Of a stretch of 39,992 nucleotides of DNA, positions 2,758-26,122 are shown piece after piece; position 1 is the first letter of the stretch; the number at the start of each line of letters is the position of its first letter. The stretch spans positions 1 through 39,992 of the forward strand of contig JBBPIG010000039.1 in NCBI GenBank assembly GCA_038040445.1, written 5' to 3'. The notes beneath the pieces are model-generated. The model saw only the letters and a list, made by a program, of their open reading frames with translations. It did not search any database and was not told where the DNA came from. The DNA comes from Acidobacteriota bacterium. Lineage in GTDB: Bacteria; Acidobacteriota; Blastocatellia; UBA7656. The translations under genes and the position numbers were made by a program.

Positions 2758-2805
2758 GGCTACTAGATAGAAACAGCGAGTCCTAAACCTGCAAAAAGAA
2801 GGCAT

Positions 2806-2834
2806 ATAATATTCGAACCAACGCCTAAAAGCAA
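2806..2834 (-). promoter_or_regulatory. Possible sigma-70-like promoter for the secreted protein
   Basis: On the minus strand a TATTAT -10 box (2811-2806) follows a TTGCTT -35-like hexamer (2834-2829) with a 17-nt spacer. Transcription would start near 2799 and give a leader of roughly 330 nt before the ATG at 2468. The -35 matches consensus at only three positions, so this is tentative. Confidence 0.3.
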
Positions 2835-3213
2835 CGATAAAATCAACCAACTCAAAAAATAAATTGATACAGAACACGGCTACAGTTGGCAAACTGCTGC
2901 CGCTGAACGCACTGCACTAGCCGTGCCACGGCGAGCACTCACCTAAGAACTATTTGCCGCACGAGCTTATAACCTCGATAGACGTAGAAGTTATGGAGTT
3001 TAGTCCTTTACCGCAATGCCGTGCTGCTCGCACGCTGACCTCCGTATTTGGATACAAAGTTTCCGACGGGGTGCCCATTTACTATCCACACGGTAATCAC
3101 TATCCATCTAGTTCCTCCCTCAAACAGATATCGGGGGGCCAGTTAGTAATCTGTGATTTTGGTCCATTGCTTTGTAGGAGCTCGCTTCATTCCTCTGTGC
3201 TCTAAAGGTTGAT

Positions 3214-3243
3214 TTGCCTACATCGGGGCGGGACCACTATAAT
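3214..3243 (+). promoter_or_regulatory. Likely sigma-70-like promoter for the HAD/radical SAM pair
   Basis: A perfect TATAAT at 3238-3243 lies 18 nt after TTGCCT at 3214-3219. The predicted start, near 3250, is downstream of the ATG at 3209 but upstream of the TTG at 3284. This supports the TTG start for the next gene. Confidence 0.5.
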
Positions 3244-3283
3244 TCGCAGTTCACTGCGCACTCCGCGAAAGAGGAAAGTCGAT

Positions 3284-3994
3284 TTGAACCATCAGACACG
3301 AGCAATTCTTTTTGATTTAGATGGCACACTCATAGACACGACCGACCTCATACTGAGATGTTTTCAACACTCATGGGAGACGGTTTGCGGGTTCAACCAT
3401 TCACGCGAAGACCTTATTCAAACGTTCGGCACCCCCTTGCGAGCGGCAATGCATCGATTACTGCTCACGGAGGCTGAATCAAAAAGCGGCAGTCGGGGAG
3501 CCGAGGGCGATCCTGATGTCGTTGACCATTTGCTCGCTGAGTATCGATCATTCAATGTCGCCAATCACGACTCGCTGGCTCGGCCTTTCGAGGGCACTTG
3601 CGAGGTAGTGACGGAACTTAGATGCCGCGGGTACTTGATCGGGGTGGTAACCTCAAAGAGCCGTGAACTCGCGCTTCGCGGGCTCAGGCTATGCGCCCTC
3701 GACGGTCTAATCCACTCGGCTGTCTTCCTGGAAGATACAGATACTCACAAGCCACTTCCCGAGCCGATACACGCCGCGTTGGAAAGGTTGAGCGCCAAGT
3801 CGAGCTCGGCAGCATATATTGGCGATAGCCGCCACGACATCGTAGCGGCGCGCGCGGCCGGGGTCCGGACAGTGGCGGCACTATGGGGTCCGGCGCCTCG
3901 TACCGAGCTTGAACGCGAGCGGCCCGATTTCCTCGCCGAGTCGATCACCGATCTGCTCGAGATTTTCAGTCGAGAGAATAGGGCATTACTATAA
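3284..3994 (+). CDS. HAD-family hydrolase, phosphoglycolate/pyrophosphate phosphatase-like
   Basis: A 236-residue member of HAD subfamily IA, which removes phosphate from small phosphorylated metabolites through an aspartyl-phosphate intermediate. All four HAD motifs are visible: DLDGTL near residue 11 (nucleophile and acid/base Asp), VTSKSR near 123, HKPLPEP (motif III Lys) near 155, and GDSRHD near 180. The helical cap lies between motifs I and II. I chose the TTG start because GAGGAAAG sits just upstream and a TATAAT box precedes it; an in-frame ATG at 3209 would lie before the predicted transcript start. The radical SAM gene begins 13 nt after the stop, so the two are probably co-transcribed. 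The substrate cannot be told from sequence; phosphoglycolate phosphatase (Gph) or PpaX are the closest patterns. Confidence 0.85.
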   Translation: MNHQTRAILFDLDGTLIDTTDLILRCFQHSWETVCGFNHSREDLIQTFGTPLRAAMHRLLLTEAESKSGSRGAEGDPDVVDHLLAEYRSFNVANHDSLARPFEGTCEVVTELRCRGYLIGVVTSKSRELALRGLRLCALDGLIHSAVFLEDTDTHKPLPEPIHAALERLSAKSSSAAYIGDSRHDIVAARAAGVRTVAALWGPAPRTELERERPDFLAESITDLLEIFSRENRALL

Positions 3995-4007
3995 GGACAT
4001 CCCAAGA

Positions 4008-5837
4008 ATGCAGAAGATCAAAGATCGATATCGAAAACTACTTACAAGTGAGGTGGGCCTCGTGAGCCACAAGCCTCGCGGGCGCGGCTTAGACATTGCG
4101 CTTGCTTATCCGAACACCTACTACATCGGGATGTCCAACCTCGGTTTTCAAGCAGTCTACCAGCTCTTCAATTCTCATACTGGCGTAACCTGCGAGCGCG
4201 TCTTCGCGCCCGATGCCGACATAGAACAAGAGCTCGATCGGACTCGCACGCCATTGCTATCGTTAGAGTCAGAAACACCGATCTCTGATTTCGATGTGCT
4301 CGCTATCTCGGTTTCATTTGAAACCGACTATCTCAACATTCCCAAGCTGCTCCGGCTCTCAAAGATTCCCGTCAGGACACGGGACCGAAACCACTGGCAC
4401 CCGCTTGTAGTTATGGGTGGCGCCGCGGCCTTTCTGAACCCTGAGCCGGTGGCCGACTTTGTCGATGTGGTTTGCGTCGGCGAGGGCGAAGTGCTCGTGC
4501 CTGCCCTGGTCAGACTAATGAACGAGGCAGCCTCGCGCGAAGATCTGTTGTTGCGGCTTGCTCGAGAGCCTGGTTTCTACGTTCCCAGCTTCTACAACAT
4601 ACATTACCAAACGGACGGGAGCATAAGGGAACTAATCCCCACCAACGGGGCTCCTCGCCGAGTCTTCACGATGCGCAATCCAATGCGTAAGCAGGAAGGC
4701 AACGGGCACTTCGAGGACGACTTCATCCCAGCAAGTGAGATCATAACCGACAACACCGAAATGAGCGGCCGCTACCTTGTTGAGATTTCGCGCGGCTGCT
4801 CGATGGGTTGCCGCTTCTGCTGGGCGGGCTATTCTTATCTTGCTCCCCGAGTTTTTTCCGCCGAGAAGCTCCTCGCTCGCGCGGCCGAGATGCGCAAGCT
4901 CACCGACAAGATCGGACTGGTAGCCACCGCTGTCTGCGATCATCCTGAGATTCATCAGCTCCTGGCGGGCCTGGAAGAGCTAGACTATCAGGTTTCGGTT
5001 TCGTCTTTGCGGCTTGATCAGATCTCACCCGAGCTGCTTGATGCCTTAGTTCGTCGAAATGACCAGCAGATAGCCATCGCCCCAGAGACCGGCTCTGACA
5101 GATTGCGGCGGGTTATCAATAAGGACCTCACAAACGAGCAGGTGGTGGACATCGCCCGGATGATCTTCGACCGCGGCATCCTGAACCTGAAACTTTACAT
5201 GATGATCGGGCTGCCCACCGAAGAAGATGAAGACATAGATGCGATTGTGTCGCTCACCGAGCGAATACGCGAGCGGATGATCGAGGCAGGGAGACCGAGA
5301 GGAAGAGTCGGTTCGATTATCGTTTCGTTGAATGCGTTCGTGCCTAAACCGCAAACTCCATTTCAGTGGGAGCCGATACAACCCGAGAAAGTGATCGATC
5401 AAAAGATCAAATACCTGACGCGAGCCTTTAAGCAAATCCCCAACGTCGAAGTGCGAGCCATGTCGTCGCGCATCGCTCAGCTCCAGGCGTTGCTCTCTCT
5501 AGGCGACCGGCGCGTTTCCGAGTTCATTCTGGAAGCAGACCGAACCGGCAATTGGCGCCAGGCAATGCGAGGTTGGACTGACTATTCGCTCAGGCGGCGT
5601 TCGCTCGATGAACTGCTGCCTTGGGATGTAGTTGACATCGGACTCACAACCGAATTCATGAAGCGGGAATACCAGCGCGCGATGGCCGAGAAGGTCACAA
5701 AGCCTTGCCCGGCGACCGATCCCTGCGTTCGCTGCGGCGTCTGCGATCCGAGCCATGTGCCTGAAGGTGCTCTGGTGCAGTTGTCCTGGATGAAGCCGCC
5801 CAGCGTGCTCGTCGCTTCAGGCTCGGCCGGCGACTAA
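4008..5837 (+). CDS. B12-binding-type radical SAM protein, TIGR03960-like
   Basis: 609 residues. The N-terminal third resembles the Rossmann-like B12-binding fold of the family (DIALAYPNTYYIGMSNLGFQ, then MGGAAAFLNPEPVADF and a VCVGEGE turn). The radical SAM core carries C264-x3-C268-x2-C271 in SRGCSMGCRFCW, the ligands of the 4Fe-4S cluster that cleaves S-adenosylmethionine. Downstream come IAPETGSDRLRR and MMIGLPTEEDED, both typical of the family. The C-terminus has a Cys cluster near residues 567-582 (CPATDPCVRCGVCDPS) that could hold a second metal site. In many bacteria this family is fused to or followed by a DUF2344 domain and sits near RNase E/G and ribosomal genes; neither is present here. 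The start is the ATG at 4008, after AAGGAC. The reaction is unknown. Confidence 0.85.
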   Translation: MQKIKDRYRKLLTSEVGLVSHKPRGRGLDIALAYPNTYYIGMSNLGFQAVYQLFNSHTGVTCERVFAPDADIEQELDRTRTPLLSLESETPISDFDVLAISVSFETDYLNIPKLLRLSKIPVRTRDRNHWHPLVVMGGAAAFLNPEPVADFVDVVCVGEGEVLVPALVRLMNEAASREDLLLRLAREPGFYVPSFYNIHYQTDGSIRELIPTNGAPRRVFTMRNPMRKQEGNGHFEDDFIPASEIITDNTEMSGRYLVEISRGCSMGCRFCWAGYSYLAPRVFSAEKLLARAAEMRKLTDKIGLVATAVCDHPEIHQLLAGLEELDYQVSVSSLRLDQISPELLDALVRRNDQQIAIAPETGSDRLRRVINKDLTNEQVVDIARMIFDRGILNLKLYMMIGLPTEEDEDIDAIVSLTERIRERMIEAGRPRGRVGSIIVSLNAFVPKPQTPFQWEPIQPEKVIDQKIKYLTRAFKQIPNVEVRAMSSRIAQLQALLSLGDRRVSEFILEADRTGNWRQAMRGWTDYSLRRRSLDELLPWDVVDIGLTTEFMKREYQRAMAEKVTKPCPATDPCVRCGVCDPSHVPEGALVQLSWMKPPSVLVASGSAGD

Positions 5838-10742: not shown

Positions 10743-11080
10743 ATCTGGTTATGTCTTCTACCCCAATCCAGCCAGGCTTGCGTCATCCTTCTCATATTAC
10801 CCCTGTCTTGTGGATTGACGGGATCGTCCTTTGTCAGCGCTCTAAGCGCCAAAAACCAGTGCCCACCCCGCTCCTGTAGTTCCCGAAGAATAAGGGGAAT
10901 TACTCTTCTTCCCAGGGCAACGATTTGATAATAAGTCTCTTTCGATACAATCTCAGATGTAGAAGACAGGAGCCTCGTTTCTTCGTACCATTGATCTGTC
11001 AATTGGCGGAACTCTCTTTCTAATTCGCGATCTGCTTCGCTAGCCTGTTGTTGCGCCTCTTGAATCGTTAATGTCGCCAT
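10739..11080 (-). CDS. Conserved hypothetical protein, partner of the Cys/His protein
   Basis: 113 residues, mostly helical and charged. Recognisable positions are LTDQWYEETRLLSS near 27, ETYYQIVALGRRVIPLILRE near 48, GGHWFLALRALTKDDPV near 72 and MTQAWLDWGRR near 97. The order (W..ET..SS, then Y..I..LG...IPLIL.EL, then HWF.AL, then P and AWL.WG) is a pattern I have seen in uncharacterised proteins of diverse bacteria. It is the first gene of the three-gene run and is translationally coupled to the next by a 4-nt overlap. The fixed pairing suggests a two-protein module, perhaps toxin-antitoxin or defence related, but this is inference. Confidence 0.75.
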   Translation of the reverse strand: MATLTIQEAQQQASEADRELEREFRQLTDQWYEETRLLSSTSEIVSKETYYQIVALGRRVIPLILRELQERGGHWFLALRALTKDDPVNPQDRGNMRRMTQAWLDWGRRHNQI

Positions 11081-11175
11081 ATGTGATACCCCGCAGGCGA
11101 GTCAAATGTGAGCTTACCCAGAATAGAAGTGCGATCTCCCTACTAACAAACTCCGGCCGAACAACCCGTGGAGCA

Positions 11176-12741
11176 CTAACCCACTGCCTGAACCATTTCG
11201 GGATTCAGCCCCTCCCACTTCGCCATGTATTCGCGCCGTTCGTTCTTCAAGCGTTCTACGATCTGCTCGTATTCGTCCGTTCTGCCTTGCCTCTCGTAGA
11301 GCTTGCGCGGCTGAAGGATCTCGTTGTCTTCGCCGTCCATTCCCGGAACCATTGCGGCGATTTGATAGCCGAAGTCCGGGTCTTCTTGCCACTCGATCGT
11401 TCCTTCGGCGATCCCTTTCACTATTGCCGAAGAGTGCTGAATGCGAACCTTCTTCGACCGCTCATCTTCGTCGCGCCCTCCTACACGGCCGGTGTTCATC
11501 AAGAAGACTTCCATCGGCGACGACTCCAGCAGCTCCCAGAAGCGATTACCTTGCAGCGCATGCTTCAGCGGGAAGAACGGGTTGGTGCCGGGCACCCGCA
11601 GGAACTTGCCGGCTTCGGATGCGCCGCCTGCCGACGTGCCCCGCGTCTCACCCAGCATGAAGTAAGCGGCCGCTTGATGGCGATTGAGCTTTGCGACTCC
11701 CGGAATGATGTTGTCATTGCGATTGAGTATCAAGAGGAAGTCGGCTGACTGGATCTCGCGCGCATCCATAGCGCCGGCGATGTCTTGCATGCGCACGACC
11801 GCGCGGCCGTTCTGCGTGTAGCTGGTGTCGTAGAAATCAAGCTCGCCCGCTTCATTCTGCGAGACGTTTTCCAGATACGCGTGCTCGCTCGTGACTGCGT
11901 TATAGATAGTCGGCTCGTCCTTTTCGTTCAGCGCGAATGTCTTCGCAAAGCAACCGTTTTCCGTAGCGTAGATCTTCCCGCCGGGCATCAGCGCCAGGAA
12001 GTCATCTTGAACCGGAGAAGAGTCGTTCTGTTTGGTGAAGGTGGTAGTAGTCTTACCCGTGCCCGATAGCCCGATGATCAAGCCGACGCGCTTCTGGTCG
12101 CCAACCGGGATGACCTTACAGCCGGCGTGAAGCGCGAGCCCGCCTCGGTCGTAGACCATCTGGTTCCACATTCGCAGGCCGCCCTTTTTCGATTCTCCAA
12201 AATAGTCGCTGTTAAGAACGCGAGTGACGCCGTTCTCCAGATCGACCGCGATCAACCGGTCGGCTGGATAACCCTTCATCTCGATATTCGGAGTGTAGAT
12301 GATCGTCAGGCGAGGCTCGAAATTGCGCAACTCCTCCTCAGTCGCCGGGTAATAGAGGTGCTTCTGCATTCCGGCAACGTTCGCGTTCGACTGCTCGATG
12401 ATCAGACGACTCGGTACGCGAAATTCTGAGTCGTTTCCGATGAAGCCATCTACCAGTATCATCTCGCAGCCGCGAATATAGTCGTTCTGCAGCTTCGCGA
12501 CCCGTTCATACTCCTGGCGAGTGATTGTCGGCGAGTCGTGACGCTCGGGCGTATCGGAAACAACATAGGTTGAAAGCTTCGAGCGCGCGTCGACCCGGGA
12601 CTGAGTGTTGGTATTGTCGTAGCGGGTGACGCGAGTGTTGGGCATCTTTTCTGTGAGCAGGCGCAAATCTTCGGCCGATGGATTCCACACGATTTCTTTC
12701 GGATCGACCGGCAGCGCGGCTCGGGCAGATGGCTTACTCAT
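11176..12741 (-). CDS. pckA: Phosphoenolpyruvate carboxykinase (ATP)
   Basis: 521 residues. PckA converts oxaloacetate and ATP to phosphoenolpyruvate, CO2 and ADP, the entry step of gluconeogenesis, in the cytoplasm. The P-loop is GLSGTGKTT at 224-232 (Lys230). The kinase-2/metal site is QDDF at 245-248, and the substrate region has LALHAGC near 202-208 (His205). NGCFAKTFAL and HAYLENV follow, and the C-terminal half has NTGRVGG and RIQHSSAIVKGIAEG. The sequence is clearly of the ATP type but differs from the E. coli enzyme at many positions (QDD rather than GDDEH in kinase-2), so it belongs to a divergent clade. GGAGG sits just before the ATG. It appears to be a single-gene transcript. Confidence 0.93.
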   Translation of the reverse strand: MSKPSARAALPVDPKEIVWNPSAEDLRLLTEKMPNTRVTRYDNTNTQSRVDARSKLSTYVVSDTPERHDSPTITRQEYERVAKLQNDYIRGCEMILVDGFIGNDSEFRVPSRLIIEQSNANVAGMQKHLYYPATEEELRNFEPRLTIIYTPNIEMKGYPADRLIAVDLENGVTRVLNSDYFGESKKGGLRMWNQMVYDRGGLALHAGCKVIPVGDQKRVGLIIGLSGTGKTTTTFTKQNDSSPVQDDFLALMPGGKIYATENGCFAKTFALNEKDEPTIYNAVTSEHAYLENVSQNEAGELDFYDTSYTQNGRAVVRMQDIAGAMDAREIQSADFLLILNRNDNIIPGVAKLNRHQAAAYFMLGETRGTSAGGASEAGKFLRVPGTNPFFPLKHALQGNRFWELLESSPMEVFLMNTGRVGGRDEDERSKKVRIQHSSAIVKGIAEGTIEWQEDPDFGYQIAAMVPGMDGEDNEILQPRKLYERQGRTDEYEQIVERLKNERREYMAKWEGLNPEMVQAVG

Positions 12742-14518: not shown

Positions 14519-16015
14519 ATGAATGTTCTTCTACTCTCGATGCCCGATTCGTTCGAGCATATGCCGTCTATCGTGATTCGTATGCCCAACGGCGCGCTTA
14601 CCTCTCTGGCCGGAAACGTGGACCCTCATCACAAAGTCGCCGTTGCCGATCTCGTTCTTGTCCAGCAGCAAGTGCGCGAAACCGTCGAACGCCTGGTCAC
14701 CGAGCTCTCACCCGACGTAGTCGGTCTGTCGGTAATGACTTTTCAGCGCAAGACAGCGTTCAAGATCATCGACCTGGTGCGCCAACTGAAACCCAACGTG
14801 CGCGTCGCGGTTGGCGGCTACGATCCGAGTCTCGCGGCGGAAGCGTACACCGACAACTCGTCGGGCGTTGTCGACTTTGTCGTGCGCGGCGAAGGCGAGA
14901 TAACCTTCCGCGAACTCCTGCGCGCGATCGAGGAAGAGCGCGGGTTCGATCATATCGGAGGGCTCTCGTATCGAAGCGGCGACCGCTTCTATCACACGCC
15001 GGACCGCCCGGTTAACGGACTCGAGAACGGCGAAATAAGGCTTCCCAATCGCGCCGCGCGCGTGCTGAAGGGCTACACCATACTCGGCCGGCAAGTGGAC
15101 GTGATCGAGACCTCGCGCGGCTGCACCTTCGATTGCAGCTTCTGTTCGATCATCGAGATGCGCGGGCGGAACTTCTTCACTTACTCGTTCGATCGAGTGA
15201 TAGCCGACATTCGCGACGCGCACGACCGCGGCGCGCGGGCTATCTTCATCGTAGACGACAACGTTGTGCTGAACGTGAAGCGCTTCGAAGCTCTTTGTCG
15301 GGCGATCATCGACGCGGGTCTCAACGACATCGACTACACGGTCCAGGCGATGACCTCGGCGATAGCGAATCATGGAGAGACGCTCGCGCCGCTTATGCGC
15401 AAGGCGGGATTCCGCTACGTGTTTCTCGGGATCGAGAACGTGCTCGAAGACGATTTGAAATTCCTCAACGCCAGCTCAAAGAACACCAAACGCGAGAATG
15501 GTCAGAAGGCGGGCAATGCCACGCTCAAGGCGATCGACTACATTCGCAAGAACAAGATGTACGTCGTAGGCGGATTGATCGTCGGAAACCCCGACGACAC
15601 GCGCGAGTCGATCCAGACCAATCTCGAGTTCGCGAAGAAGTACATCGACTGGCCCTACATTCAGCACCCGACGCCTTATCCTCGCACGCCGATGACCAAG
15701 GAGTTTCGCGACCGCGGGCTGATCATCAACGAGCGTCTCGAAGAGTATGACGGCACCACGGCGGTGGTGAAGACCGAACACCTATCAGCCGAAGAAGCCG
15801 AGTACATGAGATGGAAGTCCGAGCGTTGGATGAAGGTCCGGCACATCCCGGCGGCGTTCCGACACAACCCGTTGTTCGTTTTGCGGAACGCGCCGAGGAT
15901 GTTCGGGCACACCTTCCGAGGAAGCACGGTTAAGAACTTCCTGGGTCTTGAAGACGAACGCGAAGCATTTGAACGGTATCGAGAGATTCGCCGCGCCGAA
16001 CGGATGTACGTCTAG
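14519..16015 (+). CDS. Cobalamin-binding-type radical SAM protein
   Basis: 498 residues. The N-terminal 130 residues form a B12-binding-type Rossmann domain (DVVGLSVMTFQRKTAFKIID, then VAVGGYDPSLAAEAY and FVVRGEGEITF), as in the BchE-type P-methylase family. The radical SAM core has C202-x3-C206-x2-C209 in SRGCTFDCSFCS, followed by FIVDDNVVLNVKRF and FLGIENVLEDDL. The usual DxHxxG cobalamin ligand is not obvious, so B12 may bind base-off or not at all. A GAAGGGA ribosome-binding site sits 8 nt before the ATG. The C-terminal 90 residues are Arg-rich and end in RRAERMYV. Family members modify lipids, hopanoids, tetrapyrroles or antibiotics; no neighbour narrows this down. Confidence 0.85.
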   Translation: MNVLLLSMPDSFEHMPSIVIRMPNGALTSLAGNVDPHHKVAVADLVLVQQQVRETVERLVTELSPDVVGLSVMTFQRKTAFKIIDLVRQLKPNVRVAVGGYDPSLAAEAYTDNSSGVVDFVVRGEGEITFRELLRAIEEERGFDHIGGLSYRSGDRFYHTPDRPVNGLENGEIRLPNRAARVLKGYTILGRQVDVIETSRGCTFDCSFCSIIEMRGRNFFTYSFDRVIADIRDAHDRGARAIFIVDDNVVLNVKRFEALCRAIIDAGLNDIDYTVQAMTSAIANHGETLAPLMRKAGFRYVFLGIENVLEDDLKFLNASSKNTKRENGQKAGNATLKAIDYIRKNKMYVVGGLIVGNPDDTRESIQTNLEFAKKYIDWPYIQHPTPYPRTPMTKEFRDRGLIINERLEEYDGTTAVVKTEHLSAEEAEYMRWKSERWMKVRHIPAAFRHNPLFVLRNAPRMFGHTFRGSTVKNFLGLEDEREAFERYREIRRAERMYV

Positions 16016-16068
16016 TTCAACTTTAGTTGCGCCTCCTCCCGGGTGTTTCGACAAACAAGACCCACCTT

Positions 16069-19000
16069 ATGGAGAGCAATTCGAAAATCTTCATCAGCTA
16101 CAGCCACGATTCCGACGCACACCGCGAAAAGGTGCTCGCGCTCTCCGAACGACTGCGCGCGGACGGCATTGAGACTCTCCTCGACCAGTATGTGAATGGC
16201 TCGCCGGAGCAGGGCTGGCCGCGCTGGATGCTCGACCAACTCGATGCGGCGACCTTTGTTCTCGTCATCTGCACCGAAACTTACTACCGCCGATTCCGTG
16301 GACACGAAGCGCCGGGCAAAGGCAAGGGGGCGGATTGGGAGGGCGCACTCATAACGCAGGAGATTTACGACAGCCGCAGCCAGACCTTGAAGTTTGTACC
16401 TGTATTCCTCACCGCTGTGGTTGAGGAACACATTCCCGAGCCGCTGCGCCCGCATACGCACTACGCGCTCACTTCGGAGGATGCTTACCAGCGGCTCTAT
16501 GATTTTCTACTGCGTCAGGCGGGAGTTGAGCCAGGGTCTGTCGGCATGCTCAAGAAGAGCCACCGTCGCAAAGGCACCCCGCTGACTTTCGACGGGCCTG
16601 CCCAAGCCTCTCGCCCTGTCGACATCTCGCGCATCGTCAAATACGCCCCGGCTGAACTCATTGGGCGCGAAGCCGAGACCGCGCTGCTCAACGACGTCTG
16701 GGCCAAAGTCCGCCGCGCTGAGTCACCGCGTCCGCACATCCTCACCCTCGTCGCGCTCGGCGGCGAGGGGAAGACTTCACTCGTAGCGAAGTGGGCGAGC
16801 CAGCTCGCCTATCAAAACTGGCCTGGGTGCGACGCCGTGTTCGCGTGGTCGTTCTACAGCCAGGGCACGCGCGATCAGGTGGCCGCCTCATCCGATCTGT
16901 TCCTCAAGGAAGCGCTCAATTTCTTCGGGGACGACGCGGACAAGGAATTCGCCGCCAGCAACGCCGGGGCTTTCGAGAAGGGTCAGCGGCTCGCTCGCAT
17001 CGTCGGCGAGCGGCGGGCGCTACTCATCCTGGATGGCTTGGAGCCGCTGCAATACGCGCCCACCTCGCCCACGCCGGGCGAACTCAAGGATCAGGGGATC
17101 GCCGCGCTGCTCAAAGGACTGGCCGCCAACAGTCACGGCCTGTGCATAGTCACTACGCGGTATGCCCTCCCCGACCTGCGCGCCTTCATCGGCAACACCG
17201 TCCACGAAGAAAAGCTCACGCGCCTTTCCACCGACGCGGGCGTGGCGCTGCTTCAGTCCTTAGGCGTGCACGGCATTTTACGGAAAACCATTTCGAGCGC
17301 CGATGGGCGGGACCTTTGGAACGAGTACGAGAAGCTGGTCGAAGATGTGAAAGGTCACGCGCTGACTTTGAACCTGCTCGGCACTTACCTGCGCGACGCC
17401 CACGCTGGAGACATCCGCCAGCGCGACCTGATCAAGCTTGAGGTAGCCGATGCCACAAACGAACATCGGGATCACGCATGGCACGTGATGGAAGCTTATG
17501 TGAAGTGGATGGCTCCAACCGGCTTGCACGCTTGGCTGAGGCGTTTGTTCAAGGCGAAAGATCGCGAGCTTCAGGCGGAGGGGAATCGTGCCCTCTCCCT
17601 ACTGAGGCTGCTCGGCCTGTTCGACCGTCCCGCCACGGCGGATTGCCTGAAAGCTTTGTGGCAGCCCCCGGCTATCGCTGGGTTGACCGAACCGCTCGTC
17701 GGGCTCAGCGAAGCGCAGCGCAACCTGTCGCTCAAGCGACTGGAAGACGCGAAGCTGCTGACGGTGAACCGGGCGCAAGGTTCCGGCGAACTCATCGCCC
17801 TCGACGCCCATCCGCTGCTGCGGGAATACTTCGCCCGGCGCGTGCGACAGCAGGAGCCCGAAGCCTGGCGCGCTGCGCACCAGCGGCTTTACGAACACCT
17901 CTGCGCAACCACGCCGGACGAGCCTGAGCCTATGCTCGAAGATCTTCAACCGCTCTACCAAGCCGTGGCCCACGGCTGCCAGGCGGGGATAACCGAGGAA
18001 GCTCGTGCAACGGTTTACCGCGACCGCATCCAGCGTGGGAGAGAAGCCTACAGCACGTTCAAGCTCGGCGCGCTCGGTTCCGATTTGGGAGCCATCGCCT
18101 GCTTCTTTAAGCAGCCTTGGAGCGAACTCTTGCCCGCCATTTCAGAAGGTGGAGAAGCCTGGCTGCTGAACGAAGCCGCCTTCACCCTGCGCGCCTTGGG
18201 TCGGCTAACCGAGGCCCTCGAACCGATGCGGGCGAACCTGAAGATGCGCGTAGAGCGCGAGGAATGGCAGCACGCCCCTTCAAGCGCCAGCAACCTGAGC
18301 GAGTTGGAGCTGACGTTGGGCGAGGTGGCCGGGGCGGTGGGGGACGCCAAGCAGTCCGTGACCTACGCCGACCGCAGCGGCGATGCGTATCAGCGGATCG
18401 CGAGGCGCACAGCCCACGCCGACGCCCTGCACCAGGCGGGCTCCCGGGCCAAGGCGGAGGCGCAGTTCCGCGAGGCCGAGCAGATGCAGGCCGAGCACCA
18501 GCGCGCCTACGCGCTGCTGTATTCCGTGCGGGGCTTCGAGTATTGCGACCTGCTCCTCGCGGAGGGGGAGCGTGCCGCGTGGCAGATGAGAAATGCGGAA
18601 CGAGGAATGCGGAATGCGGAATTGATTGAAGCGTGCCGCGCCGTCTCTCAGCGCGCGGCGCAGACGCTCAAGTGGGTGACCAAAGGAAAGCTTGGCCTCC
18701 TGACCATCGCCCTCGACCATCTCACCTTGGGCCGCGCCGCGCTCTACGCGGGGATTCTTGAAGATTACGACTTCCGACTTCCGACTTCTGACTTCTCGCA
18801 CATAGACGCCGCCGTGTCGGGCCTCCGCCGCGCTGGCACGCAGAACTGGATTCCTGCCGCCCTCCTCACCCGCGCCTGGCTGCGGAGTCTCACCGGCGCG
18901 CGCACCGGCCCCGAGAGCGCGCAGAGCGACCTGGACGAAGCCTGGGAAATCGCCGAGCGCGGCTCGATGCGGTTGTTCCTGGCGGATATTCACTTGCACC

Positions 19001-19218
19001 GGGCGAGGCTCTTCGGATTGCGGATTGCGGATTTCGGATTGCAGAATGAAGAAGCGGATAGCGGTGTGCGGAATGAAGCAGCGGAGCCATATCCGTGGGA
19101 ATCGCCCGAAGCGGATTTGGCGGCCGCTGAGAAGCTGATCAACGATTGCGGCTACCACCGCCGCGACGAAGAACTCGCCGACGCCAAGAAGGCGATTCTC
19201 GGACAAGAACTGATATGA
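16069..19218 (+). CDS. SEFIR-STAND NTPase-TPR protein, NLR-like candidate defence or signalling protein
   Basis: 1049 residues in animal-NLR-like order. Residues 1-150 are a SEFIR/TIR-like domain (KIFISYSHDSDAHREKV, GWPRWMLDQLDAATFVLVIC). A STAND NTPase follows: P-loop GGEGKT at 231-236, Walker B LLILDG near 320, the TTR motif in IVTTRYALPDL, and GHALTLNLLG. A winged-helix-like segment and DAHPLLREYF come next, then tetratricopeptide-like helices to the end. In characterised bacterial NLR-like proteins, C-terminal repeats sense a phage or stress signal and the N-terminal domain is the effector; applying that here is inference. Three heptad repeats are inserted in frame in the C-terminal third (residues about 840-852, 900-909, 982-1004). 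I took the ATG at 16069 over a TTG at 16027. No strong ribosome-binding site is seen. Confidence 0.85.
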   Translation: MESNSKIFISYSHDSDAHREKVLALSERLRADGIETLLDQYVNGSPEQGWPRWMLDQLDAATFVLVICTETYYRRFRGHEAPGKGKGADWEGALITQEIYDSRSQTLKFVPVFLTAVVEEHIPEPLRPHTHYALTSEDAYQRLYDFLLRQAGVEPGSVGMLKKSHRRKGTPLTFDGPAQASRPVDISRIVKYAPAELIGREAETALLNDVWAKVRRAESPRPHILTLVALGGEGKTSLVAKWASQLAYQNWPGCDAVFAWSFYSQGTRDQVAASSDLFLKEALNFFGDDADKEFAASNAGAFEKGQRLARIVGERRALLILDGLEPLQYAPTSPTPGELKDQGIAALLKGLAANSHGLCIVTTRYALPDLRAFIGNTVHEEKLTRLSTDAGVALLQSLGVHGILRKTISSADGRDLWNEYEKLVEDVKGHALTLNLLGTYLRDAHAGDIRQRDLIKLEVADATNEHRDHAWHVMEAYVKWMAPTGLHAWLRRLFKAKDRELQAEGNRALSLLRLLGLFDRPATADCLKALWQPPAIAGLTEPLVGLSEAQRNLSLKRLEDAKLLTVNRAQGSGELIALDAHPLLREYFARRVRQQEPEAWRAAHQRLYEHLCATTPDEPEPMLEDLQPLYQAVAHGCQAGITEEARATVYRDRIQRGREAYSTFKLGALGSDLGAIACFFKQPWSELLPAISEGGEAWLLNEAAFTLRALGRLTEALEPMRANLKMRVEREEWQHAPSSASNLSELELTLGEVAGAVGDAKQSVTYADRSGDAYQRIARRTAHADALHQAGSRAKAEAQFREAEQMQAEHQRAYALLYSVRGFEYCDLLLAEGERAAWQMRNAERGMRNAELIEACRAVSQRAAQTLKWVTKGKLGLLTIALDHLTLGRAALYAGILEDYDFRLPTSDFSHIDAAVSGLRRAGTQNWIPAALLTRAWLRSLTGARTGPESAQSDLDEAWEIAERGSMRLFLADIHLHRARLFGLRIADFGLQNEEADSGVRNEAAEPYPWESPEADLAAAEKLINDCGYHRRDEELADAKKAILGQELI
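18586..18624 (+). repeat. In-frame heptad repeat, GGAATGC word
   Basis: Tandem 7-nt units GAGAAAT, GCGGAAC, GAGGAAT, GCGGAAT, GCGGAAT inside the SEFIR-STAND gene. Because 7 is not a multiple of 3, they are read in all three frames and give the peptide MRNAERGMRNAE. No reverse-complement arm lies nearby. The peptide interrupts helical repeat sequence and has no counterpart in the rest of the protein. Confidence 0.75.
18768..18797 (+). repeat. In-frame heptad repeat, GACTTCC word
   Basis: Four tandem heptads, GACTTCC twice and GACTTCT twice, inside the SEFIR-STAND gene, read as DFRLPTSDFS. On the other strand the word is GGAAGTC, matching the GGANNNN form of the family. Confidence 0.75.
19011..19080 (+). 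repeat. In-frame heptad repeat, GGATTGC word
   Basis: Units TTCGGAT, TGCGGAT, TGCGGAT, TTCGGAT, TGCAGAA, then a degenerate part to about 19080. They are read in frame as FGLRIADFGLQNEEADSGV. I recall similar FGLRIADFGL strings in proteins predicted from other uncultured bacteria, which would fit a recurrent mobile or slippage-made element, but this was not checked. Confidence 0.75.
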
Positions 19219-19367
19219 GAGCTTTATGGAGCAGGTTGAACATGAGCCGCGAGAATCCGTGGACGCCGATCTTAATGCTCTTGCCGCTTCGGCGGAAATG
19301 ATTGCTACCATCGCAAGCGAAAGCTAGAATGGCGGTGACTGCGAAGCCGCTCCACGAGGTGCGCAAG

Positions 19368-19670
19368 ATGACAGACCAGCAAAGCACAATAGTCATGGAA
19401 GAAGTGACTGATCCCCAACGCGTCGCCGAGGCTCACGCGCGACGCGAGCGATTCGACCGAAATTGGCTGTGGCTCCGAGAGCACGCTCAGGAGGTCTACG
19501 AGCGCTACCGCGGGAAGTGTATCTCTGTAGCAGGTGAAGAACTGTTCGTCGGTGATACACCACAAGATGTGATTGCTCGAGCCGCAGCCGCACACCCGGA
19601 GGACGACGGAAGCTTCGTCCATTACATTCCTCACAAGAAAATGGCTCGAGTCTATGGTAATCGCTGGTGA
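19368..19670 (+). CDS. DUF5678-like small protein
   Basis: 100 residues. The core FDRNWLWLREHAQEVYERYR followed by GKCISVAGEELFVGDTPQDV is the pattern I know from DUF5678-type proteins: a Trp-rich helix, then a small beta domain. The end, FVHYIPHKKMARVYGNRW, is also typical. The ATG at 19368 is preceded by GAGGT at a good distance; an upstream frame extension to 19302 is unlikely to be used. It overlaps the retropepsin-like gene by 17 nt, and this two-gene arrangement recurs in cyanobacteria and Acidobacteriota to my knowledge. A role as substrate or inhibitor of the partner protease is a guess. Confidence 0.8.
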   Translation: MTDQQSTIVMEEVTDPQRVAEAHARRERFDRNWLWLREHAQEVYERYRGKCISVAGEELFVGDTPQDVIARAAAAHPEDDGSFVHYIPHKKMARVYGNRW

Positions 19671-20088
19671 ATGGTTTTTTTGCTCCGACGACATCGTGCG
19701 CCCGGTGATTCGGGGTGAGGCTCTTGCGTATAATGGGCGCTGGATCCAAGTTCCCTTTCTTGTTGACAGCGGCGCGGATCGCACGGTGTTTAGTGGCGCT
19801 CTGCTGGCGAAGCTGGGCCTGACGCCCCTTACGGTTCAAGAAGGTATAAGCGGACTTGGCGGAGCGGCTGACTCGGTAGTCGTAGAAACTCAGATACAGT
19901 TCACTCGTGAAACCGGCGGACAAGTCGTTTTCCGAGGCCGCTATGCGGCCGTTACTGGAATAGACACACTGGACATCAGTGTCCTGGGCCGAGACGTTAT
20001 GGATATATTCGCAGTGATAGTCGATCGACCCGGTGATGTGGTCAGTCTTGTCGGCCAGCGCCACCGTTACACCATCGAGCAGATTTGA
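19654..20088 (+). CDS. Retropepsin-like aspartic protease
   Basis: 144 residues. FLVDSGADRTVFSGALLAKL, with the catalytic Asp at 38 in DSGA, is the single-chain retropepsin signature. A second half with YAAVTGIDTLDISVLGRDV supplies the hydrophobic LGRD-type motif near residue 110-120. Retropepsin-like proteases act as homodimers, with one Asp from each chain. No signal peptide or membrane anchor is visible, so the protein is probably cytoplasmic. The ATG at 19654 overlaps the DUF5678-like gene and excludes a long unrelated N-terminal extension in the same frame. Its target is unknown. Confidence 0.8.
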   Translation: MVIAGEWFFCSDDIVRPVIRGEALAYNGRWIQVPFLVDSGADRTVFSGALLAKLGLTPLTVQEGISGLGGAADSVVVETQIQFTRETGGQVVFRGRYAAVTGIDTLDISVLGRDVMDIFAVIVDRPGDVVSLVGQRHRYTIEQI

Positions 20089-20096
20089 AGAGCCCT

Positions 20097-20197
20097 CTTA
20101 ACTAACTCAAGCACGCCACAAGCCGATCTCTTCACCAACACCCCGTTCGCGGGCTGATCTTGAAGACGCGAAGCGCAGTGGCGATGTCTAGTCCGTC
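20097..20197. repeat. Direct repeat flanking the nucleotidyltransferase pair, left copy
   Basis: About 100 nt similar to 21149-21250, with the shared core GATCTCTTCACCAACAC. The two copies bracket the genes at 20248-21067. The right copy is the intact 3' end of the ornithine cyclodeaminase gene plus a few downstream bases. Confidence 0.65.
20107..20197 (-). pseudogene. Frameshifted remnant of the ornithine cyclodeaminase 3' end
   Basis: The minus strand encodes GLDIATALRVFK in one frame and ARERGVGEEIGLWRA plus a stop in another. Joined, these match EDISTALRVYNLARERSVGEEIDLWRR, the C-terminus of the intact gene at 21163-22125. A one-base frame change separates the two parts. The similarity continues a little past the stop codon. 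The copy is in the same orientation as the intact gene, about 1050 nt away. Confidence 0.75.
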
Positions 20198-20247
20198 CGT
20201 CCGGCTCTGTACTTTCATATCGCTCTGTATTCGATTATTCTTGTCGC

Positions 20248-20508
20248 ATGAACGATGAGCCATCTTCTCTAGCCAATTGGACGCCGGAGCAGATCGCATT
20301 AGGTAAACGGTGGGTCGAGACATGGCGGCTCGCGGGCGAGGAACTCGAGCGAATTCACCGGAAGGAGCTTCGGGAGCTCGACAGCTACCGAGCAATCGCC
20401 CTGCTTTGCGGTCCCGCGGATTATACGCGGCCACCCCGCGCGCCTAAACCGACTTCCGGTCTCGTCGAACAGCAGCGATGGTTCATGAAGGCGGCCGGCC
20501 GTGATTGA
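20248..20508 (+). CDS. Small partner protein of the nucleotidyltransferase
   Basis: 86 residues, charged and mainly helical. EQIALGKRWVETWRLAGEEL and ERIHRKELRELD form one long amphipathic helix, followed by a Pro-rich tail with GLVEQQRWFMK. The stop overlaps the start of the next gene by 8 nt, so the two are translationally coupled. Similar short proteins sit before AbiEii-like nucleotidyltransferases in other genomes to my knowledge. Its place suggests an antitoxin or regulatory subunit. No DNA-binding motif is apparent. Confidence 0.75.
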   Translation: MNDEPSSLANWTPEQIALGKRWVETWRLAGEELERIHRKELRELDSYRAIALLCGPADYTRPPRAPKPTSGLVEQQRWFMKAAGRD

Positions 20509-21067
20509 GGTCATCCGGGCGGCGGCTGAGCTACAAGCAGTCTGCCAATCGCAGGGCTGGCAGTTTTGTTTTATCGGCGGACTTGCGCTCCAGCGTTGGG
20601 GTGAACCGCGCGAAACCGTCGATGCCGACCTGACCCTTCTGACCGGCTTTGGCGGCGAGGAGCCGTTCATTCAAATTCTGCTTCAGCACTTTGAAGGGAG
20701 AATTCCAGACGCCGCCCAGTTCGCCCGAGAGCGGCGCGTGCTGCTTCTCCGCTCGAGCAAAGGTGTCGGTCTGGACGTAGCACTTGGGGCGTTGCCGTTC
20801 GAAGAATTGGTAGTGCAGCGTTCCTCTTTCTTTGACTATCCCTCCGACATTGCGCTGCGCACGTGCTCAGCCGAAGACCTGGTTGTGTTGAAAGCTTTCG
20901 CGAGCCGCGGGCAGGATTGGGTGGATATCGAGCGGATCATTGTACGGCAGACCGGCAAACTCGACTGGCGATATATTCGCGACCAGTTGCGTCCACTGGC
21001 TGAGTTGAAGGGCGCTCCGGAAATCCTCGATCAGCTTGAGAGCCGCCGCGCCGAGCTCGAGCAGTAG
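20501..21067 (+). CDS. Nucleotidyltransferase of AbiEii/AbiGii toxin type
   Basis: 188 residues, starting at GTG. CFIGGLALQRWGEPRETVDADLTLL places the nucleotide-binding Gly26-Gly27 and the metal-binding Asp41-x-Asp43 in the order of the polymerase-beta-like fold. A later LDVALGALPFEELVVQRSS supplies the third acidic residue region (near 88). RTCSAEDLVVLKAFASRGQDW, then DIERIIVRQ, is the helical part typical of AbiEii-like proteins. AbiEii toxins transfer nucleotides to target RNAs and are neutralised by a partner; whether this one is toxic is inferred from the fold and the coupled small gene. Direct repeats flank the pair. Confidence 0.82.
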   Translation: MIEVIRAAAELQAVCQSQGWQFCFIGGLALQRWGEPRETVDADLTLLTGFGGEEPFIQILLQHFEGRIPDAAQFARERRVLLLRSSKGVGLDVALGALPFEELVVQRSSFFDYPSDIALRTCSAEDLVVLKAFASRGQDWVDIERIIVRQTGKLDWRYIRDQLRPLAELKGAPEILDQLESRRAELEQ

Positions 21068-21148
21068 CTGAAGCCTTCCAATCCTTGCGACGTTTTATTC
21101 CTCCGCGCACAACGGCGACGCCCGCGACCAAATCCTGAAGCGATCTGT

Positions 21149-21250
21149 CTTAACCAACCATCTCAGCGCCGCCACAAGTCGATCTCTTCACCAACACTCC
21201 GTTCGCGAGCAAGGTTGTAAACCCGCAATGCCGTCGAAATATCCTCGAGC
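21149..21250. repeat. Direct repeat flanking the nucleotidyltransferase pair, right copy
   Basis: The right-hand copy of the 100-nt direct repeat. It comprises the C-terminal codons of the intact ornithine cyclodeaminase gene and about 14 nt after its stop. The left copy is decayed. Confidence 0.65.
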
Positions 21251-22125
21251 GCAATGCCGTTTGATTTGAACACCGTGATATCGTCCTCGCCTCTGCGTCC
21301 CTGATCGCGGCCGGCAACTATGCGCCCGAGCTCGGTCACCGATTCCCAACTGATAACTCCGCGCTCGATCGCAGGCATCAAGTCGCCCGCTTCGATCTTC
21401 GATTGCTCGATTGAATCGACGGCAATAACCGAAGCTCGGCGAATCGTCTCGACATCGATCTCGGCCTTCGATAAGAAGTTCGAGCCCGCCGCGTTGATGT
21501 GAGTGCCCGGCTCGATCCATTCGCCTTTGAATACAGGCTCGCGCGACGTCGTTGCGGTCACGATGATCGAACACCCTCTCGCGGCTTCTTCCGGGGAAGC
21601 TACGGCAAGCACCTCGGTCCGGAGCAGCGTGGTCATTCTTCGAGCAAACGCTAAGCGGCGCTGGGCGTCGCGGCCGTACACCTTGATCGCCTTGATGTGC
21701 CGAACTGCGCACACGGCCATCATCTGGCTCTCGGCTTGCCAACCCGTGCCGTACACCCCAAGCACATCGGCGGACTCGCGCGACATGTACTTCGTAGCTA
21801 CAGCCGACGCCGCGCCCGTTCGCATTTGTCCCAAGCGATCGGCTTCGATCATCGCTAACATATCGCCGGTCTCGGATTCGTAGAGCAAGACCAGGAACCG
21901 CGCGCCCTTTTTCGAAGCAGTGTAGACCTTCAAGCCGTAGACCCCCAGCCTTCGATCGCCGGCCGCAAGCACGTGCAGTTGCGACGTTGGCGTTGCCACT
22001 CGGTAGCGCGGTCTGTTGGTCGCTTGCCCCTCGGCTTGATCGCGCAAGACTTCTTCAACGGCGGCGATCGCCGTCTCGATGTCGAGCAGTTCAGTTACGT
22101 GTTGTTCTCTTAGTAGTAGTGCCAT
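21163..22125 (-). CDS. Ornithine cyclodeaminase/mu-crystallin family protein
   Basis: 320 residues. The family binds NAD(P) and acts on amino or imino acids: ornithine to proline, alanine dehydrogenase, or ketimine reductase. The Rossmann motif is GTGWQA at 126-131 within VLGVYGTGWQAESQM. MRTGAASAVATKYMS at 101-115 and INAAGSNFLSKAEID near 211 are family hallmarks, as is DDITVFKSNGIALEDI near 280. An upstream lysine in YGLKVY (Lys66) fits the catalytic site. Several subfamilies share these motifs, so the exact substrate is undecided. The gene start is followed upstream by the heptad element at 22140. Confidence 0.88.
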   Translation of the reverse strand: MALLLREQHVTELLDIETAIAAVEEVLRDQAEGQATNRPRYRVATPTSQLHVLAAGDRRLGVYGLKVYTASKKGARFLVLLYESETGDMLAMIEADRLGQMRTGAASAVATKYMSRESADVLGVYGTGWQAESQMMAVCAVRHIKAIKVYGRDAQRRLAFARRMTTLLRTEVLAVASPEEAARGCSIIVTATTSREPVFKGEWIEPGTHINAAGSNFLSKAEIDVETIRRASVIAVDSIEQSKIEAGDLMPAIERGVISWESVTELGRIVAGRDQGRRGEDDITVFKSNGIALEDISTALRVYNLARERSVGEEIDLWRR

Positions 22126-24029: not shown

Positions 24030-26122
24030 GCCCCCGCAAGCAGAAGAGTTCGCCTGAACCCATCAGGATTGGAATTGACACCGGCGGTACCTTCACCGAC
24101 TTTGTCGCGGCGCACGCCGGGCGCCTCACCGCCTTCAAAGAGCCTTCGACTCCGCACAATCCCGCCGAAGCAATACTTTCGGGCATCGCGCGGATTCTCG
24201 CGAACGCCGAAGCCGGGCCGTTCGAGATCGTCCACGGCACAACGGTGGCCACCAACGCGCTGCTGGAACGCAAAGGCGCTCGCACAGCGCTCATCACAAC
24301 CGAAGGTTTCGAGGACGTAATCGAGATAGGCCGTCAGGCTCGCCCAGACCTCTACAACTTGATGGTCACACGACCGGCGCCGCTCGTGCCGCGTGAGCTG
24401 CGGCTGGGCGTGAGCGAGCGAACCGGTCCGGCTGGCGAAGTCATCACACTTCTCGACGAACAGTCCGTCGCAAAAGTAGTCAAGCTGATCTCCAATCACA
24501 AACCGAGAGTCGAGTCGGTAGCCGTCTGCTTGCTCTTCTCGTTCGCGAACCCGGCGCACGAACAGCTCATTGCGCGGGCGCTCGAACCGCTCGGTATTCC
24601 CGTTTCGCTCTCTCACAAGATACTGCCCGAGTACCGTGAATACGAGCGAACATCAACGGTAGTCATCAACGCCTATCTGGTTCCGCTGATGTCACGTTAT
24701 CTGAGCGCGCTGACGGAAGGGCTGAAGTCCGTAGTCCGTAGTCCGTCGTCCGTAGCGAAGTCTAAAACCAAGAGCCACGGACTACGGACCACGGACTACG
24801 GACTCCGCGTCATGCAATCCAATGGCGGATCGGTTTCTGCTGCGACCGCCGCTTCCGAACCGGTTCGGGCCATTCTTTCGGGTCCTGCCGGGGGCGTTGT
24901 CGGCGCGTTGCGAGTCTGTGCCGCCGCGGAAATCCGGGACATCATCACTTTCGACATGGGAGGCACCTCGACCGACGTTGCTTTGTGCCGCGGAGAAGCG
25001 CACACCACGAATGAGGCTCTGGTAGCCGGTTTGCCGGTAGCTGTGCCGGTCATCGATATCCACACGGTCGGCGCGGGAGGAGGCTCGATCGCGCGAGTCG
25101 ACGCGGCGGGGGCGTTGCGGGTTGGACCCGGGTCGGCGGGCGCTGATCCTGGTCCGGCTTGCTACGGGCGCGGCGACGAAGTCACCGTTACCGACGCCAA
25201 TCTGGTGCTTGGGCGCTTTGGCGGAGCAAGCTTGCTCGGAGGCGAGATGCCAATCGATACCCAGCGCGCGAGAACGGTTCTCTCGAGACTGGGAGCGGAA
25301 ATGTCGCGCTTCGCTGGAAAGACGGTCACCGCCGAGCAGGCCGCTCTTGGTGTAGTGCGCGTCGCGAACGCCAACATGGAAGCAGCCCTGCGAGTCGTGT
25401 CGGTTGGACGAGGCCAGGACCCGCGACTGTTTACGCTGGTAAGCTTCGGCGGCGCCGGCGGACTGCACGTGTGCGAGCTTGCGGCGGCGCTGCGGGTCCC
25501 CCGCGTGGTGGTGCCGCGCTCGCCCGGCACTCTCTCCGCTCTGGGCGTGTTGCTTGGCGATGTGGTGAAGGACTACTCGCGGACGGTGATGAGCAAGACC
25601 TCCGGGCTCGACAAGCGAAAGCTCGAGCGCGGCTTTGCGGCACTCGAGCGAGAAGCCGTCCGCGATTTGAAGGACGAGGGCTTCGATAAGACCCGGATGA
25701 AGCTGGCGCGATCGGTCGCAATTCGATACATCGGGCAGTCTTTCGAAATCGACGTCGCGTGGAGCAGCCGCTTCGAAGCCGCCTTTCACGCCGCCCACCG
25801 CGAGCGGTACGGTTACGCTGACCGCTCGCGGCCGATCGAGATCGTATCGCTTCATCTGCGCGCGTCGGGTATTACCCAGAAGCCGCGCATAAAACGCCAG
25901 CCCTCCAGCAAGTCGCGCCGCCCGCAGCCTCCGCAGTCCAAGCGCGTTTATTTGACCGAGCGCGCGACGCCGGTGCCTGTTTATGATCGCGAGAACCTGA
26001 GCGCCGGCGATCGATTCGCGGGTCCAGCCATCATCACCGAGTACAGTTCGACTACGTTGATCCCGCCGCGCTTCAGCGTCCAGGTTGATCCGTGGGTGAA
26101 TTTGATCATAGAAGTAGCGTAG
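24026..26122 (+). CDS. hyuA: Hydantoinase A/5-oxoprolinase-type ATPase subunit with a repeat-derived insertion
   Basis: 698 residues. N-methylhydantoinase A and 5-oxoprolinase subunits use ATP to open cyclic imides or oxoproline. IGIDTGGTFTDFVA at residues 14-27, HGTTVATNALLERKGA near 72 and SGPAGGVVGALR near 287 belong to the actin-like ATPase fold. FDMGGTSTDVALC and VGAGGGSIA follow, and PGSAGADPGPACYGRG is the family signature. The usual partner HyuB is not in the window; the gene is instead coupled to an FKBP isomerase. Residues about 233-261 are translated from a heptad hairpin and split the conserved run between LTEGL and VMQSNGG. The protein may still fold if this loop is exposed. Confidence 0.9.
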   Translation: MSPRKQKSSPEPIRIGIDTGGTFTDFVAAHAGRLTAFKEPSTPHNPAEAILSGIARILANAEAGPFEIVHGTTVATNALLERKGARTALITTEGFEDVIEIGRQARPDLYNLMVTRPAPLVPRELRLGVSERTGPAGEVITLLDEQSVAKVVKLISNHKPRVESVAVCLLFSFANPAHEQLIARALEPLGIPVSLSHKILPEYREYERTSTVVINAYLVPLMSRYLSALTEGLKSVVRSPSSVAKSKTKSHGLRTTDYGLRVMQSNGGSVSAATAASEPVRAILSGPAGGVVGALRVCAAAEIRDIITFDMGGTSTDVALCRGEAHTTNEALVAGLPVAVPVIDIHTVGAGGGSIARVDAAGALRVGPGSAGADPGPACYGRGDEVTVTDANLVLGRFGGASLLGGEMPIDTQRARTVLSRLGAEMSRFAGKTVTAEQAALGVVRVANANMEAALRVVSVGRGQDPRLFTLVSFGGAGGLHVCELAAALRVPRVVVPRSPGTLSALGVLLGDVVKDYSRTVMSKTSGLDKRKLERGFAALEREAVRDLKDEGFDKTRMKLARSVAIRYIGQSFEIDVAWSSRFEAAFHAAHRERYGYADRSRPIEIVSLHLRASGITQKPRIKRQPSSKSRRPQPPQSKRVYLTERATPVPVYDRENLSAGDRFAGPAIITEYSSTTLIPPRFSVQVDPWVNLIIEVA
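24722..24808 (+). repeat. Heptad-repeat hairpin inside hyuA, GTAGTCC/GGACTAC word
   Basis: Left arm in steps GAAGTCC, GTAGTCC, GTAGTCC, GTCGTCC; right arm CCACGGA, CTACGGA, CCACGGA, CTACGGA. The arms are complementary and separated by about 20 nt. It is the same word family as the intergenic element at 29802-29898. It is in frame, adding about 28 residues to HyuA without a stop. Confidence 0.85.

What the first reader, a model, noticed from the sequence alone, without database searches (positions are those of the whole stretch)
20097..21250. Nucleotidyltransferase pair bracketed by a duplicated gene 3' end
The AbiEii-like pair lies between a decayed copy and the intact copy of the last ~85 nt of an ornithine cyclodeaminase gene, in direct orientation. 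This is what integration at a gene 3' end, or a tandem duplication, would leave. No integrase is present, so the pair may have moved by a different route or the enzyme may be lost.
Basis: seen in the sequence. Interest (0 to 1): 0.6.

Follow-up and report, generated by a model that had tools for sequence, protein, structure and literature searches.

The report
Toxin-like gene pair beside gene stub
A small toxin-like gene pair sits between a whole enzyme gene and a broken-off second copy of that gene's end, and similar gene pairs in related bacteria sometimes sit in the same kind of scar, which suggests that they can move between genomes without carrying an enzyme for cutting and pasting DNA.

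Summary
Window 20097-20188 is a second, frameshifted copy of the last ~90 nt of an ornithine cyclodeaminase-family gene (21163-22125, minus strand). The copies bracket a two-gene operon whose second gene is an AbiEii-like nucleotidyltransferase. In G002 (same family) the flanking genes are 242 bp apart with one gene end; no intact second copy was found beside the gene in the five family genomes that hold it.

The pattern recurs. Of 48 testable homologues of this nucleotidyltransferase and of the neighbouring aspartyl-protease gene, 12 lie between direct repeats (score >=40, cut-off set afterwards); in at least nine of them one copy lies in a longer gene. Controls: inverted repeats 0 of 48; random intervals 48 of 1500. 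Gene 5' ends occur as well as 3' ends, and no recombinase was matched among 29 window ORFs, which argues against integrase attachment at a gene 3' end.

In 10 loci the differences between copies fall mostly at third codon positions (32/15/77), so the copies are probably different functional alleles rather than a fresh duplicate that decayed. Best reading: integrase-free insertion with long target duplication, as reported for restriction-modification systems, probably by homology-anchored recombination of incoming DNA. The molecular route is inferred.

The parts
20097..20188 (-). Left (distal) copy: stub of the last ~90 nt of a cyclodeaminase gene, with a one-base insertion
20156..20188 (-). 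Inner block of the stub, 19 of 33 identical to the intact gene, 10 of 14 differences at third codon positions
20116..20154 (-). Outer block of the stub, 36 of 39 identical to the intact gene
20248..20508 (+). Small partner gene (86 aa, no Pfam match), overlaps the start of the next gene; putative antitoxin
   Evidence: a small ORF ends near the nucleotidyltransferase start in 27 of 27 loci by a loose criterion
20501..21067 (+). AbiEii-like nucleotidyltransferase (188 aa), GTG start; putative toxin
   Evidence: PF08843 31.8 bits vs cut-off 22.5; weak PADLOC AbiEii match, E 0.0088
21153..21243 (-). Right (proximal) copy: 3' end of the intact gene plus about 10 nt after the stop
21163..22125 (-). 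Intact ornithine cyclodeaminase/mu-crystallin family gene
   Evidence: PF02423 E 8.4e-67; orthologues in five family genomes
19302..20088 (+). Neighbouring pair: small gene (no Pfam match) plus retropepsin-like aspartyl protease, ending 8 nt before the stub; homologues elsewhere are often bracketed by repeats
   Evidence: PF13650; bracketing at other loci, not here (L118 score 30)
16027..19218 (+). SEFIR/TIR plus NACHT-like ATPase gene between the radical-SAM gene and the protease pair; probable defence gene
   Evidence: its beginning follows the same radical-SAM gene in same-genus G001

Best explanation
The nucleotidyltransferase pair is a small toxin-antitoxin-like unit that entered the 3' end of the cyclodeaminase gene as an insertion with a long target duplication: a whole gene remains on one side and a stub of about 90 nt on the other. 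No recombinase of its own is involved. The likely route is recombination of incoming DNA (for example by transformation) that pairs with the resident gene over a short matching stretch and is joined without homology at its other end, so that one copy of the gene end is resident and the other came with the incoming DNA. Shown: the bracketing, a single-copy site in a relative, the recurrence at other loci, the codon pattern of the differences. Inferred: the route, which copy is resident, and the toxin-antitoxin function.
For: Bracketing direct repeat. Single gene end and 242 bp between the radical-SAM and cyclodeaminase genes in G002; no intact second copy found in five family genomes. Recurrence: direct score >=40 in 12 of 48 testable loci (nucleotidyltransferase 4 of 24, protease 8 of 24), inverted 0 of 48, highest 29; random intervals 48 of 1500 direct and 20 of 1500 inverted (Fisher P 9e-8). 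Differences between copies in 10 loci fall 32/15/77 by codon position (P 5.5e-11); 77:15 for third against second position speaks against 'identical at insertion, then the stub decays' (P 2e-4 with null 2/3). In the window, at 17 differing sites in five relatives, the stub base occurs 32 of 85 times and the intact base 34 of 85 (counted). In G113 the kbl-stub base is present in at least 9 of 29 genus loci at 7 of 9 differing sites; tdh ends within about 45 nt of kbl in 4 of 29 relatives' loci but 3.8 kb away in G113. No recombinase family in 29 window ORFs. Movement between families: the nucleotidyltransferase is 83-84% identical in G140 and (partial) G138 of another family, while the partner gene was found in 1 of 7 genomes of the window's own family.
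Against: The empty site (G002) is another genus and also lacks the SEFIR and protease genes there, so it does not isolate the insertion of this pair. Same-genus G001 has no assembled sequence here. 36 of 48 loci show no bracket at the cut-off. The cut-off of 40 was set after seeing scores, the window is one of the 12 (and L039 and L118 are the same place), and the random control comes from one genome. The codon argument assumes one neutral rate for stub and gene. At one window site all five relatives agree with the intact gene against the stub, and at 2 of 9 G113 sites the stub base is rare or absent, as decay would give. L122 has almost no difference between copies. No donor of the second allele was found. 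Gene trees did not resolve whether the intact gene is foreign.
Confidence: 0.6

Rival explanations
1. Decayed tandem paralogue: the gene was once duplicated in tandem, both copies worked, and one was later reduced to its 3' end when the pair landed in it.
For: The stub diverged from the intact gene as coding sequence.
Against: No intact tandem copy found in five family genomes with the gene. The same scar occurs at several unrelated genes, which would need an independent tandem duplication each time.
Confidence: 0.2
2. Site-specific integration at the gene 3' end by an integrase acting in trans or since lost; the element carried its own version of the 3' end.
For: Direct orientation, and the gene restored by a copy of its end; such elements (established knowledge) also leave two different versions of the end.
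Against: No recombinase in the 29 window ORFs scanned. At other loci gene 5' ends are duplicated too, and repeat lengths at score >=40 range from 36 to 253 nt. Targets are different genes.
Confidence: 0.1
3. Plain target duplication: identical copies made at insertion (staggered break filled in, or template switching), then decay of the stub. It shares the general claim of the best explanation and differs in the route.
For: L122 has 89 nt with almost no difference; the term used for restriction-modification systems is target duplication.
Against: Codon-position pattern, and allele-like stub bases in the window and in G113.
Confidence: 0.25
4. Chance similarity or assembly error.
For: The assembly is in 72 contigs.
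Against: Score far above shuffles; the copies differ too much for an assembly artefact; the same anatomy occurs in other assemblies.
Confidence: 0.02

Closest known systems
Insertion with long target duplication of restriction-modification systems (Nobusato 2000 and Furuta 2010, as cited in PMC3874152; passages of the review read, the originals not read)
   Same: Small gene unit, not linked to a known mobile element, long and variable target duplications of the order of 100 bp
   Different: Here the units are toxin-antitoxin-like pairs in another bacterial group, and the two copies mostly look like different alleles
Homology-facilitated illegitimate recombination (PMC3240628, start of abstract seen in the listing; PMC5361080, passages read)
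   Same: One homologous end and one non-homologous end; proposed in Vibrio cholerae for toxin-immunity modules that leave older genes beside them
   Different: The route is not shown here, and the matching stretch would be short (repeats of 36-253 nt)
Merodiploid formation by transformation in Streptococcus pneumoniae (PMC3784515, abstract read)
   Same: Transformation can create direct duplications through alternative pairing
   Different: Duplications there are about 100-900 kb
AbiE type IV toxin-antitoxin systems
   Same: Nucleotidyltransferase of the AbiEii Pfam family with a small upstream partner gene
   Different: Toxin is shorter (188 aa; PADLOC AbiEii profile 294) and the partner matches no Pfam, PADLOC or NCBIfam model

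Membership tests
Insertion with long target duplication | Inserted gene unit bracketed by direct copies of about 100 bp of the target gene | tested here: met
Insertion with long target duplication | Related genome with an empty site holding one copy | tested here: inconclusive
   G002 has one copy, but is another genus and lacks the neighbouring modules at this site too
Insertion with long target duplication | No recombinase linked to the unit | tested here: met
   29 window ORFs scanned, none a recombinase; smaller ORFs not scanned
Insertion with long target duplication | Copies identical at the time of insertion | tested here: inconclusive
   codon pattern argues against it over 10 loci; L122 is nearly identical
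Integrase-type element at a gene 3' end | Integrase gene in the element | tested here: not met
Integrase-type element at a gene 3' end | Same kind of gene end used each time | tested here: not met
   3' ends (window, L044, L122, L137) and 5' ends (L104, L127) of different genes
AbiE type IV toxin-antitoxin | AbiEii nucleotidyltransferase domain | tested here: met
   PF08843 above cut-off
AbiE type IV toxin-antitoxin | AbiEi partner with its known domain | tested here: not met
   partner has no match in Pfam, PADLOC or NCBIfam
AbiE type IV toxin-antitoxin | Toxicity neutralised by the partner | not testable with these tools
   needs expression assays

The most novel reading that the evidence does not exclude
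Toxin-antitoxin-like pairs of unrelated families in this bacterial class share one recombinase-free way of spreading: the pair travels on incoming DNA with a piece of a host gene, anchors by that short piece in the recipient's own allele, and leaves a whole gene plus an allelic stub. Chromosomal toxin-antitoxin pairs would then be mobile units in their own right, and the stub would record the donor.
Probability: 0.35. Interest if true: 0.68.

Novelty: new variant of a known kind. Interest (0 to 1): 0.5.

Why it matters
How chromosomal toxin-antitoxin pairs without a linked mobile element spread is, to my knowledge, still open. A recurring scar of known anatomy (whole gene, pair, allelic stub) makes this testable: stubs can be searched in genome collections, dated, and traced to donors. 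A large search would show whether such pairs use the insertion mode reported for restriction-modification systems.

Tried and rejected
The extension of the repeat past the stop codon into the end of the aspartyl-protease gene was tested and is weak. The window's protease gene has no bracketing repeat (L118), and the 3' ends of the radical-SAM and SEFIR genes have no second copy in the tested stretches. Trees of the cyclodeaminase, VWA and radical-SAM proteins were built to ask whether the intact gene is foreign; the forks that matter were unresolved. A weak near-full 5S rRNA match in G140 did not hold up by alignment; only a fragment is there. An Rfam scan of 20 loci gave no match above a curated cut-off.

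An unbiased scan of 1.107 Mb of G000 gave 41 direct and 20 inverted repeat pairs at score >=55 with gaps of 300-4500. I picked 18 direct pairs by hand, dropping clustered or palindromic repeats, overlapping rows and longer paralogue pairs. Among the ten proteins I sent from these intervals, Pfam found a nucleotidyltransferase, a PIN and an FRG domain above cut-off and a Phd-type antitoxin below its cut-off. Several of the 18 were repeats inside one protein or unexplained, so no enrichment is claimed from this scan.

In the codon count 10 of the 14 loci were used; for L120, L123, L127 and L128 I assigned no frame (L123 and L127 do lie in long frames). L124 has no clear intact copy; I counted its right one as intact. 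L116 and L129 are below the score cut-off; without them and the window the counts are 21/8/55. Three of 27 nucleotidyltransferase loci lacked flank and could not be tested.

Full report
What is there. The window is contig 39 of a 6.75 Mb assembly in 72 contigs. Three family relatives have contigs of the same lengths as named records of Blastocatellia / Chloracidobacterium (G003, G005, G006), so the window genome very probably belongs to the Blastocatellia (Acidobacteriota). From left to right the region holds a radical-SAM gene (14519-16015), a SEFIR/TIR plus NACHT-like ATPase gene (16027-19218; PADLOC bSEFIR E 9e-45), a small gene plus retropepsin-like aspartyl protease (19302-20088), the stub (20097-20188), a small gene plus AbiEii-like nucleotidyltransferase (20248-21067), and the cyclodeaminase-family gene on the other strand (21163-22125).

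The repeat. An ungapped core of 55 nt is 84% identical; with gaps it covers about 92 nt. The score is 68 against a maximum of 30 in 100 shuffles, and the next match in the genome has E 0.04. The stub reads DIATALRVFKI and, after one inserted base, ARERGVGEEIGLW, against DISTALRVYNL / ARERSVGEEIDLW in the intact gene. The inner block differs at 14 of 33 sites, 10 of them third codon positions; the outer block differs at 3 of 39 (Fisher P 0.0007). So the inner part diverged while it was still coding. Two distant paralogues in the same genome match the stub less well (15-18 identical sites per block against 19 and 36).

Relatives. Five family genomes hold an orthologue of the cyclodeaminase (69-77% protein identity), and no intact second copy was found beside it (a stub-sized piece could be missed). 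In G002 the radical-SAM and cyclodeaminase genes face each other, 242 bp apart, with a single gene end: a site without the 5 kb of SEFIR, protease and nucleotidyltransferase genes. Same-genus G001 has the start of the SEFIR gene after the radical-SAM gene (92% DNA identity), but its contig ends there and no sequence up to the FKBP gene was found. The SEFIR gene is therefore probably older than the split of these two species; the age of the pair is unknown. In the family the partner gene was found only in G000 (1 of 7 genomes), while G140 and G138 of another family hold the nucleotidyltransferase at 83-84% identity (174 and 101 residues, cut by contig ends) and the partner at 68-69%. This points to horizontal movement.

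The pattern recurs. I aligned the two flanks of every homologue found: 27 nucleotidyltransferase loci (160 class genomes; 24 testable) and 24 aspartyl-protease loci (118 genomes). A direct repeat scoring >=40 brackets 4 of 24 and 8 of 24; no inverted repeat does (highest 29). Random 560-nt intervals in 1.107 Mb of G000 give 48 of 1500 direct and 20 of 1500 inverted. The cut-off was set after seeing the scores, the window is one of the 12, and the random control is from one genome. In at least nine of the 12 (window, L104, L044, L051, L122, L124, L125, L127, L137) one copy lies in a longer reading frame. Recognised by eye, not by a call: an aminopeptidase-like gene (L044), a cupin gene (L122), kbl (L104), a SpoVR-like gene (L127), a HEPN gene (L125), and tdh beside kbl. 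The duplicated part is the 3' end in the window, L044, L122 and L137, and the 5' end in L104 and L127. In L104 and L051 a further small gene lies between the copies. A second nucleotidyltransferase pair of the same genome (C11, L051) is among the bracketed ones.

Two alleles, not one duplicate. In 10 loci to which I assigned a frame, the differences between copies fall 32/15/77 on codon positions 1/2/3. If identical copies had been made at insertion and the stub then decayed freely, second and third positions should differ at about 1:2; the observed 15:77 is unlikely under that (P 2e-4; without the window and two borderline loci 8:55, P 2e-4). The test assumes equal neutral rates in stub and gene. 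In the window, over 17 differing sites and five relatives, the stub base occurs 32 of 85 times and the intact base 34 of 85; at one site all five agree with the stub and at one all five agree with the intact gene. In G113 the pair lies between tdh and kbl with a 123-nt kbl stub; 29 kbl loci of the genus were compared. At 7 of 9 differing sites the stub base is present in at least 9 of the 29; at the other two it is rare or absent, as decay would give; at two sites the intact base is found in 1 of 29. tdh matched in 14 of the 29 loci (flanks are only 1500 bases) and in 4 it ends within about 45 nt of kbl, whereas in G113 the gap is 3.8 kb. L122 (89 nt, almost no difference) looks like a fresh duplicate.

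How it may work. The simplest account is that DNA carrying the pair enters a cell, pairs with the resident gene over a short matching stretch, and is joined without homology at the other side, so that a whole gene and a stub of a different allele flank the pair: homology-facilitated illegitimate recombination that leaves a duplication. Which copy is resident is not known. A piece of 5S rRNA just upstream of the pair in both G140 and G138 (family matches below the cut-off; alignment scores 62 and 55 to the 5S of G000; sequence) suggests that scraps of earlier sites travel with it. The step from one gene to an unrelated one is unexplained.

Function. A small ORF ends near the nucleotidyltransferase start in 27 of 27 loci, by a loose criterion that chance can meet. 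This and the AbiEii match make a toxin-antitoxin role likely, but the partner matches no known antitoxin model and nothing was assayed.

Known or new. [quoted passage not shown] the original papers were not read (one look-up failed). A Vibrio cholerae study proposes homology-facilitated illegitimate recombination for toxin-immunity modules (PMC5361080, passages). Five paper searches showed no report, in the titles and abstract starts that I saw, of this scar for toxin-antitoxin pairs; many journals are not held. I therefore call it a new variant of a known kind.

Noticed in passing
L199:2247-2271 (G140), L200:2719-2767 (G138): A piece of 5S rRNA, antisense, directly upstream of the nucleotidyltransferase pair in two genomes whose further flanks differ; both contigs end inside the pair, so the other side is unknown.
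   Followed up: partly
window 16027-19218: SEFIR/TIR plus NACHT-like ATPase gene; its start is 92% identical in DNA to G001, while the radical-SAM gene before it is 85%.
   Followed up: partly
window 18580-19060: Short simple repeats of the type GGAATGCGG / GACTTCCGACTT lie inside the open frame of the SEFIR gene (seen by eye).
   Followed up: no
window 24726-24807: A short interspersed repeat inside the hydantoinase gene; most of the 61 matches of a 5.2 kb query in G001 fall on it.
   Followed up: no
L201:9128-11266 (G113): Between tdh and kbl lie a small gene pair that looks TA-like by eye (10749-11266) and another gene besides the nucleotidyltransferase pair; the tdh-kbl distance also varies among relatives.
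   Followed up: partly
G000 C4:247159-249389, C4:210478-211112, C16:151689-154644, C8:84140-86545: Direct-repeat-bracketed intervals with a PIN gene, a small nucleotidyltransferase, a Phd-type antitoxin (below cut-off) and an FRG-domain gene.
   Followed up: partly
G000 C4:67637-69420: Cluster of repeats present in both orientations.
   Followed up: no
L199:1396-2106: A second ORF that looks nucleotidyltransferase-like by eye, beside the pair in G140.
   Followed up: no
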